Of a DNA stretch of 64,000 nucleotides, positions 1 through 59,715 are shown one piece after another. Position 1 is the first letter of the stretch. Every line of letters starts with the position of its first letter. The position numbers were made by a program, and so were the translations under genes. A model generated the notes under the pieces. It had not been told where the DNA came from. It did not search any database and saw only the letters and a program-made list of their open reading frames with translations. This DNA comes from Fusobacterium mortiferum ATCC 9817. GTDB taxonomy: Bacteria > Fusobacteriota > Fusobacteriia > Fusobacteriales > Fusobacteriaceae. The DNA lies in the NCBI RefSeq assembly GCF_000158195.2, contig NZ_GL987994.1, forward strand, positions 120,343-184,342. Reading direction: 5' to 3'.

Positions 1-2
1 AA

Positions 3-202
3 GGCTCAAAATACCTAAGGTTTGCTTTGTTTAATGCAGCCATCTATGTAAGCTATTGGGAACCAACATTTTCTCAATATTTGAAAAAGAAACGAGTAGA
101 AGGCAAACATTATTATGTAGCAATATCTCATGTAGTAAAAAATTAGTTAGAGTTATTTTTCACTTAGAAAAAACAAATGAAAGATACAGTACAGTAATCT
201 AA
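3..202 (+). pseudogene. IS110-family transposase, frameshifted 3' end
   Basis: The frame opening at base 3 reads GSKYLRFALFNAA and then an SYW..F..YL segment, which is the C-terminal part of IS110/IS116/IS902-type transposases. It stops at 144-146. In the next frame, from 143, translation continues as KLVRVIFHLEKTNERY up to a stop at 200-202, which is the usual end of this family. The break sits in a run of six A at 137-142; a seventh A would restore one frame. The 5' part lies outside the window. It is probably a dead or damaged insertion sequence copy, although a base-calling error in the A run cannot be excluded. No terminal inverted repeats are expected for IS110 elements and none are seen. 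Confidence 0.75.
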
Positions 203-346
203 TTGTTCATAAATTTTAATACTGTCAAAAGGTTCTAACTAAACCTTCATTTTGTGATGTAAATTTCTAAATTAACAAATTTAAATTAAATTTTTTTATT
301 TTTGATTTGACATTTAATAGTTAGTCTTAACAGTTATTTATTAATT

Positions 347-430
347 AAAAAAGCCATTCGGTTGTACCCGAATGGCTTATTAAACAAGGTCGGGTACAAA
401 TCAGTTAAACTCGAAAAAGATTTGTACCAC
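347..430 (-). promoter_or_regulatory. Mutually exclusive hairpins ending in an intrinsic terminator (attenuator-like)
   Basis: Read on the minus strand, three copies of a GTACAA/TTGTAC element make competing stems. Segment 1 (430-419) has GGTACAAATC, which pairs perfectly over 10 bp with GATTTGTACC of segment 2 (402-388). Segment 2 also has TTGTACCCGA, which pairs over 10 bp with TCGGGTACAA of segment 3 (371-362). Segment 3 overlaps the left arm and loop of a terminator, AAGCCATTCGG (378-368) with CCGAATGGCTT (361-351), followed by a T run. This is the 1:2 / 2:3 / 3:4 arrangement of a transcription attenuator. No minus-strand gene follows before the left edge; the IS110 remnant lies there instead. 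Segment 1 begins 19 nt past the leader stop codon, which is farther than in textbook ribosome-stalling attenuators. Confidence 0.72.
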
Positions 431-448
431 AAGCAGAAAATATACTAC

Positions 449-523
449 TTAAAGTCCAAACCTCGACATATTATTATTGTTATTATTAAATTGTGCAGTT
501 AAACCAAAAATGTGAAACTTCAT
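449..523 (-). CDS. 24-residue leader peptide with six consecutive Asn codons
   Basis: ATG at 523 is preceded by GGAGG at 534-530 with a 6-nt spacer, and by a good promoter at 586-558. The peptide has 24 residues; positions 13-18 are Asn-Asn-Asn-Asn-Asn-Asn (codons AAT AAT AAC AAT AAT AAT, bases 487-470), and the stop is TAA at 451-449. A run of one amino acid in a short, well-initiated ORF just upstream of competing hairpins is the hallmark of leader peptides of amino-acid operons. By analogy it would sense charged tRNA-Asn and control a gene such as an asparagine synthetase or asparaginyl-tRNA synthetase. The target is not in the window. Its control function is inference. Confidence 0.65.
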   Translation of the reverse strand: MKFHIFGLTAQFNNNNNNMSRFGL

Positions 524-557
524 AATCTGCCTCCATAACAATTAAATCTATGTGTTA

Positions 558-586
558 AGAATACACCTTTTTTAAAAAAAAGTCAA
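558..586 (-). promoter_or_regulatory. Sigma-70-type promoter of the Asn-rich leader
   Basis: TTGACT (586-581) and TATTCT (563-558) are separated by exactly 17 nt. The predicted start near 551 puts the leader-peptide ATG about 28 nt into the transcript and the terminator about 200 nt in. Confidence 0.7.
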
Positions 587-1871: not shown

Positions 1872-2012
1872 AAAAAATCCCTTCACCTAGATAGATGAAG
1901 GGCTCATAAGTCAAGTCCAAGTTTCTCATCCATCTATCAGGAGTTAGCACCACACTTGTAAAAGCAGGTTGCTGAGATGTCATAGGGCCAGTCCCTCAAT
2001 CTCTCTTGATGG
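1872..2012 (-). promoter_or_regulatory. SAM-I (S-box) riboswitch with terminator, upstream of metK
   Basis: The minus strand carries the S-box core: ATCAAGAGAGATTGAGGGAC at the 5' end (about 2010-1991), CTGGCCC, GACATCTCAGCAACC, GGTGCTAACTCC and then GATGGATGAGAA. It is followed by a terminator, CCCTTCATC..GGTGAAGGG (about 1903-1879), and a T run. SAM binding would stabilise the aptamer and allow termination before metK. Promoter, aptamer, terminator, ribosome site and gene are all in the expected order. Confidence 0.96.
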
Positions 2013-2035
2013 TCTACATTTTAAATTTACAAAAT

Positions 2036-59472: not shown

Positions 59473-59480
59473 AACGAAAA

Positions 59481-59648
59481 ATGGTAGAGGTGCAATTGAC
59501 AAGAGTAATATCTCAGAGTTTGACAAACTATGAAGAGATATGAAAGGGGAGATTGCCGAAATAAAAATCAAAGTCAAAGGATTTTTATTGGTAACTCAGA
59601 TAATATCTGTTTTACTGTCATTGATATTTCAATGGAGAGCTATCTAAA
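59481..59648 (+). promoter_or_regulatory. Lysine riboswitch (L-box) upstream of lysA
   Basis: The leader contains the L-box core in order: GGTAGAGGTGCAATTGACAA (the P1 and 5' core, from 59483), AAGAGTAATATCTC, AAGGGGAGATTGCCGAA, TTGGTAACTCAG, TTACTGTCA and TGGAGAGCTATC, whose last bases pair back with GGTAG to form P1. A terminator follows at 59716. Lysine binding would favour termination before lysA. The order promoter-aptamer-terminator-gene fits the class. Confidence 0.93.
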
Positions 59649-59715
59649 ACTATTAGTAAAATTATAGAATGTACTTAAGTTTATATTGTAAATTTTAAAA
59701 TTTATTAAAAAAGTT

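What the first reader, a model, noticed from the sequence alone, without database searches (positions are those of the whole stretch)
351..586. Asn-codon leader with competing hairpins and no gene behind it
A TTGACT-17-TATTCT promoter, a 24-codon leader with six tandem Asn codons and perfect 10-bp competing pairings leading to a terminator form a compact attenuator. Asparagine-responsive leader attenuation is not a commonplace class as far as I know. The geometry is not textbook: segment 1 begins 19 nt past the leader stop codon, outside a normal ribosome footprint, so either the mechanism differs or the RNA is a stand-alone small RNA of about 200 nt. Nothing on the minus strand follows before base 1.
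Basis: partly seen in the sequence, partly recalled or inferred. Interest (0 to 1): 0.8.

Follow-up and report, generated by a model that had tools for sequence, protein, structure and literature searches.

The report
Asparagine-sensing leader switch for asnA
This is an RNA switch that probably turns on the bacterium's asparagine-making gene (asnA) when ribosomes stall on a run of asparagine codons; a jumping gene has pushed asnA away from it here, and relatives across the Fusobacteria carry the same switch, some with the codons swapped to sense other amino acids.

Summary
Window 586-347 (minus) holds a promoter, a 24-codon leader ORF with six Asn codons, and mutually exclusive hairpins ending in a terminator. 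The 'missing' gene is asnA (aspartate-ammonia ligase). It follows the leader in every related genome. Here an IS110-family element lies between the terminator and the asnA Shine-Dalgarno, and the window starts at an assembly gap inside that element.

Asn-run leaders with a terminator precede asnA at 33 of 49 Fusobacteriaceae loci and one locus of another family. They are absent at 30 Leptotrichiaceae-like loci and 78 mainly Bacillota loci (9 of 20 of those scanned have a T-box).

The geometry is close to textbook. Stall at early Asn codons: 1:2 and 3:4 form, giving readthrough. Ribosome at stop: 2:3 and 4:5 form, giving termination. Terminator covariation is strong, 1:2 support is modest, and 2:3 is too conserved to test.

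A covariance model of this leader also finds Met (metG, metN), His (hisZ, transporter) and Tyr/Phe leaders in Fusobacteriota. No described Rfam family, and no Asn or Fusobacterium attenuator in the literature searched. No expression data.

The parts
558..586 (-). sigma-70-type promoter TTGACT-17-TATTCT
   Evidence: the same 17-nt spacing is visible in homologues of other genomes
530..534 (-). Shine-Dalgarno GGAGG of the leader ORF
449..523 (-). leader ORF MKFHIFGLTAQFNNNNNNMSRFGL*
   Evidence: homologues with other Asn run lengths
470..487 (-). six consecutive Asn codons AAT AAT AAC AAT AAT AAT (sensor)
445..464 (-). segment 1 (GAGGTTTG.ACT.TAAGTAG), overlapping the end of the leader ORF; pairs with 436-417
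   Evidence: fold (18 bp), (-17.5 kcal/mol), pair counts
417..436 (-). 3' partner of segment 1; contains segment 2 GGTACAAATC at 428-419
390..402 (-). segment 3 GATTTGTACCCGA; pairs with segment 2 (10 bp) or with segment 4 (10 bp)
362..378 (-). segment 4: 5' arm and loop of the terminator, AAGCCATTCGGGTACAA
347..361 (-). segment 5: 3' arm of the terminator and U tract
1..327 (+). right end of an IS110-family element (C-terminal transposase codons 3-146, then non-coding end) inserted between the terminator and asnA; the rest lies beyond the window behind a 100-N gap

Best explanation
A ribosome-mediated transcription attenuator that senses Asn-tRNA and controls asnA (aspartate-ammonia ligase). 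RNA polymerase starts near 551 and a ribosome begins the 24-codon leader. If charged tRNA-Asn is scarce, the ribosome stalls on the first Asn codons. The end of the leader ORF (segment 1) stays free and pairs with segment 2 in an 18-bp hairpin. Segment 3 then pairs with segment 4, the terminator's 5' arm, and transcription reads through into asnA. If Asn is plentiful, the ribosome runs to the stop codon and covers segment 1. Segments 2 and 3 pair, segment 4 is left for segment 5, and the terminator forms. The switch has five segments, so RNA with no ribosome on it should also favour readthrough, the reverse of the trp leader. In this genome an IS110-family element sits between terminator and asnA, so the coupling is probably weakened or lost here. 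Shown: sequence parts, gene association, conservation, alternative folds. Inferred: stalling, order of folding, effect on transcription.
For: Gene behind it: asnA follows the leader in all five other genomes with a close homologue, and it is full length in the window's own genome, TIGR00669 above cut-off. Breadth: 33 of 49 Fusobacteriaceae asnA loci, plus one in another family, have a Shine-Dalgarno-led Asn-run leader and a terminator. Controls: 0 of 30 loci in the sister family, 0 of 78 mainly Bacillota asnA loci, 0 of 11 asnS genes in Fusobacteriota. Covariation: terminator 98% of cells paired, 4 pairs and 13 cells changed on both sides, 0 of 500 shuffles reach its score; 3:4 92% paired against 22-51% for slid versions; 1:2 85% against 35-50%. 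Folding: P(3:4) before segment 5 is made averages 0.92 with a ribosome on the first Asn codon, 0.61 when the segment-1 core is barred from pairing, 0.47 with the ribosome at the stop; direction consistent in 13 of 13 loci. asnS is present, so free Asn charges the tRNA.
Against: No expression data. At equilibrium the finished RNA always prefers the terminator (P 1.00 from every start), so the switch must be kinetic. In the window's own sequence the stall/stop contrast is modest (0.90 against 0.75). Once segment 3 is made, 2:3 can outcompete 1:2 at equilibrium (0.80). Helix 2:3 is too conserved to covary, and the 1:2 shuffle control is weak (35 of 500 reach the score). The model fails for 4 of 5 loci of genus g14 and does not describe the long Asn-rich leaders of genera g2, g3 and g11. 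Six genomes of the same genus lack the leader.
Confidence: 0.9

Rival explanations
1. Classical trp-like four-segment attenuator, as the first reader drew it (428-419, 402-393, 371-362, 361-351), without a functional segment 1 in the leader ORF.
For: The two 10-bp pairings are the most perfect ones and are conserved. In the window's own fold the 2:3 hairpin and terminator dominate at equilibrium.
Against: Nothing would then tie ribosome position on the Asn codons to hairpin choice, because 428 lies about 20 nt past the stop. The GRTTTG/CARATC complementarity of segments 1 and 2 is kept across genera g1 and g5, with an AU/GC change on both sides in three sequences.
Confidence: 0.06
2. Stand-alone small RNA of about 200 nt ended by its own terminator.
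For: In this genome nothing but an IS element follows directly. Attenuated leaders do accumulate as short RNAs (general knowledge).
Against: asnA follows in all other genomes with a homologue. No described Rfam small-RNA family is reached: best 22.5 bits against a threshold of 50.
Confidence: 0.02
3. T-box or metabolite-binding riboswitch for asparagine.
For: asnA is T-box controlled in Bacillota (9 of 20 loci scanned).
Against: No T-box or riboswitch match in the leader or at the Fusobacteriota asnA loci scanned. The conserved feature is a translated Asn codon run.
Confidence: 0.02

Closest known systems
E. coli trp/his/thr/phe leader-peptide attenuators (ribosome-mediated attenuation)
   Same: Short translated leader with a run of the regulated amino acid's codons, mutually exclusive hairpins, intrinsic terminator, biosynthetic gene of that amino acid downstream.
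   Different: The amino acid is Asn. The switch has five segments instead of four, with segment 1 after the control codons. The model predicts readthrough without leader translation, whereas the trp leader terminates then (superattenuation, PMC1183508).
T-box leader of asnA in Bacillota (RF00230)
   Same: Controls the same gene in response to the charging of tRNA-Asn.
   Different: Senses tRNA by direct binding, without translation. No T-box match at the Fusobacteriota loci scanned.
His leader peptides before hisZ and hisS* in bacilli (PMC2965389)
   Same: Ribosome-mediated leaders outside Proteobacteria and Actinobacteria that take the place of T-boxes.
   Different: Different phylum and amino acid; whether they are homologous was not tested.
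uORFC-8-2 Cys-codon leader of cysS in Rhodobacterales (PMC8632094)
   Same: Predicted leader attenuator for an amino acid outside the classical list.
   Different: Two Cys codons, a synthetase gene, alphaproteobacteria.

Membership tests
ribosome-mediated (leader-peptide) transcription attenuator | short translatable ORF with a run of codons of the regulated amino acid | tested here: met
   Asn run unique to this leader apart from one long ORF
ribosome-mediated (leader-peptide) transcription attenuator | mutually exclusive terminator and antiterminator | tested here: met
   conserved in 14 sequences
ribosome-mediated (leader-peptide) transcription attenuator | structural gene for the same amino acid downstream | tested here: met
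   asnA in all homologues; displaced by an IS element in the window's own genome
ribosome-mediated (leader-peptide) transcription attenuator | ribosome position on control codons determines which hairpin forms | tested here: inconclusive
   in silico only: stall against stop gives mean P(3:4) 0.92 against 0.47, 13 of 13 loci; kinetic, not measured
ribosome-mediated (leader-peptide) transcription attenuator | readthrough rises on starvation for the amino acid | not testable with these tools
   needs RNA-seq or reporters
T-box (RF00230) | T-box covariance-model match upstream of the gene | tested here: not met
small regulatory RNA | no dependent downstream gene in homologues | tested here: not met
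   asnA follows
IS110 family (the inserted element) | DEDD transposase plus Transposase_20 domains | tested here: met
   PF01548 6.1e-43, PF02371 7.3e-20 on the intact copy

The most novel reading that the evidence does not exclude
Fusobacteriota carry a family of leader attenuators built on one shared RNA layout (codon run, GRTTTG segment at the leader end, CARATC partner, terminator) in which the control-codon cassette has been exchanged: Asn for asnA, Met for metG and metN, His for hisZ and a family-3 binding-protein transporter, Tyr/Phe for a Na/Ala-type symporter and DAHP synthase. The five-segment logic makes readthrough, not termination, the default without translation in the Asn members.
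Probability: 0.45. Interest if true: 0.7.

Novelty: new variant of a known kind. Interest (0 to 1): 0.55.

Why it matters
I know of no described asparagine-specific leader attenuator and found none. In 2010 leader-peptide systems were stated to be unknown outside Proteobacteria and Actinobacteria before the bacillar His case (PMC2965389). If right, Fusobacteriota, a phylum that includes oral and cancer-associated bacteria, control asparagine synthesis through the ribosome where Bacillota use T-boxes, which is a clear case of swapped sensing for the same gene. The related Met, His and Tyr/Phe leaders suggest that much of Fusobacterial amino-acid regulation is of this type. The five-segment design gives a sharp test: removing leader translation should switch asnA on, not off.

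Tried and rejected
Rfam at loose threshold: only sub-threshold chance matches. Looking for Asn leaders before asnS: none in 11 genomes. P(segment 3 bound upstream) as a switch measure: uninformative, because segment 3 also pairs with segment 1 through GACCTTG. Modelling of genus g14 and of the long Asn-rich leaders: inconclusive; for the latter more free RNA trivially gives more partners. Automatic terminator search misassigned G032, G020 and the G061 His locus, so they were left out of the folding counts. Literature searches for Asn or Fusobacterium attenuation found nothing direct; the Fusobacterium transcriptome paper tried by DOI is not held.

Full report
Observation. The 551-340 RNA folds 4.4 standard deviations below dinucleotide shuffles. 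The Asn run is not chance: in the 2.67-Mb genome, five consecutive AAY triplets occur only here and inside one long ORF.

What follows it. Five other genomes of the genus carry the leader at 82-93% identity, and in each the next gene is a 331-aa protein. The copy of the window's own genome is aspartate-ammonia ligase, AsnA (TIGR00669 equivalog, PF03590). In that genome asnA is intact at contig C8 118955-119950, 393 nt beyond window base 1. Between terminator and asnA lies an IS110-family element: its right end is window 1-327, and its left end abuts the asnA Shine-Dalgarno. A 100-N scaffold gap inside the element ends exactly where the window starts. An intact copy of about 1.58 kb elsewhere in the genome encodes a DEDD IS110 transposase. 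This explains 'no gene behind it'.

Distribution. PF03590 was sought in 98 Fusobacteriota genomes: 78 have asnA, 80 loci in all. Upstream scanning found a Shine-Dalgarno-led ORF with a run of Asn codons and a terminator at 33 of 49 loci in the window's family (counting the displaced one here) and at the one locus of another family, but at 0 of 30 loci in the sister family. A 34th locus, G056, keeps only the leader. Outside the phylum, 78 asnA loci, mainly Bacillota, have no comparable leader, while 9 of 20 scanned have a T-box in front of asnA. asnS, present in all 11 genomes tested, has no Asn leader.

Anatomy. GAGGTTTG.ACT.TAAGTAG (464-445), spanning the last leader codons and the stop, pairs with CTGCTTG.GGT.CAAATCTT (436-417) over 18 bp, -17.5 kcal/mol. 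The layout is: Asn codons; 1:2; 2:3; 3:4 antiterminator; 4:5 terminator. In a 14-sequence alignment (A1) the terminator has strong compensatory change. Helix 3:4 is kept with G-U and double changes. Helix 1:2 is kept at 85% against 35-50% for slid registers, with three pairs changed on both sides, but the shuffle control is weak. Helix 2:3 is too invariant to test, with a register shift in one subgroup.

Mechanism. Just before segment 5 is made, the modelled probability of 3:4 averages 0.92 with a ribosome on the first Asn codon, 0.61 if the segment-1 core may not pair, and 0.47 with the ribosome at the stop; all 13 loci go the same way. This is the opposite of what extra free RNA, which normally adds competitors, would be expected to do. 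Stalling at the last Asn codon would cover segment 1 (P(1:2) falls from 0.97 to 0.32), so the early codons of the run should matter. The completed RNA prefers the terminator from every start, so the choice must be made during transcription, as in known attenuators. Without a ribosome the model gives 3:4 in the Asn leaders of the two aligned genera (0.72-0.97) but hardly in the His transporter leaders (0.00-0.12): a predicted default-on against a default-off. This rests on folding alone.

A wider family. A covariance model of the Asn leaders, run on Fusobacteriota, finds the asnA leaders first. With weaker scores (E about 6e-4 to 1.4 per genome) it then finds other codon-run leaders before the fitting genes: MMMM before metG and metN; HHHHH before a family-3 substrate-binding protein (own genome, C5:191363) and HHH/HHHH before hisZ; YYYYY before a Na/Ala-type symporter; FWYFYYF before DAHP synthase. 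The codon-gene matches were not used in the search, so they are independent support. Common descent of the layout, as opposed to convergence on a terminator-like sequence, is not shown. A further aromatic-looking leader (FWFMYYF) precedes an iron-containing alcohol-dehydrogenase-like gene of unclear role (L243).

Comparison and novelty. It meets the sequence-level criteria of a ribosome-mediated attenuator; the functional ones need experiments. It is not a T-box and not a described Rfam family. In the open literature searched I found no Asn-specific or Fusobacterial leader attenuator; subscription papers and supplements were not readable, so prior description cannot be excluded. I rate it a new variant of a known kind.

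Noticed in passing
window 1-327; L031, L034, L035, L036: IS110-family element: all four copies in this genome are inserted immediately upstream of a Shine-Dalgarno sequence (AGGAG/GGGAG) followed by ATG, so its target appears to be ribosome-binding sites.
   Followed up: partly
L031/L035 element ends: Joining the two ends of the IS110 element (circular form) would create a TTGACA-17-TATAAT promoter (TTGACA in the right end, TATAAT just inside the left end).
   Followed up: no
L242 (G000:C5:191363-191474), L134, L231-L241, L244, L246-L249: Other codon-run leader attenuators in Fusobacteriota: Met (metG, metN), His (binding-protein transporter, hisZ), Tyr and Phe/Tyr/Trp leaders.
   Followed up: partly
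L243 (G017:C2:44265): Leader MSLRKVRAMFWFMYYFKTKVCI* before an iron-containing alcohol-dehydrogenase-like gene; why aromatic codons should control it is unclear.
   Followed up: no
L101 (G056): A leader MFKLITIFNNNNNT* sits directly before the asnA Shine-Dalgarno, apparently with the hairpins and terminator deleted.
   Followed up: no
L085/L094 (G034), L097/L100 (G031): Two genomes have two asnA copies, each with its own Asn leader and terminator.
   Followed up: no
L080, L081, L084, L087, L089, L073: Six genomes of the same genus have asnA without the Asn leader, and no T-box in the four scanned; how asnA is controlled there is open.
   Followed up: no
window 1927-2015 (-) and 59477-59650 (+): SAM riboswitch before metK, the gene just upstream of the Asn leader, and a lysine riboswitch near the other end of the window.
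   Followed up: no
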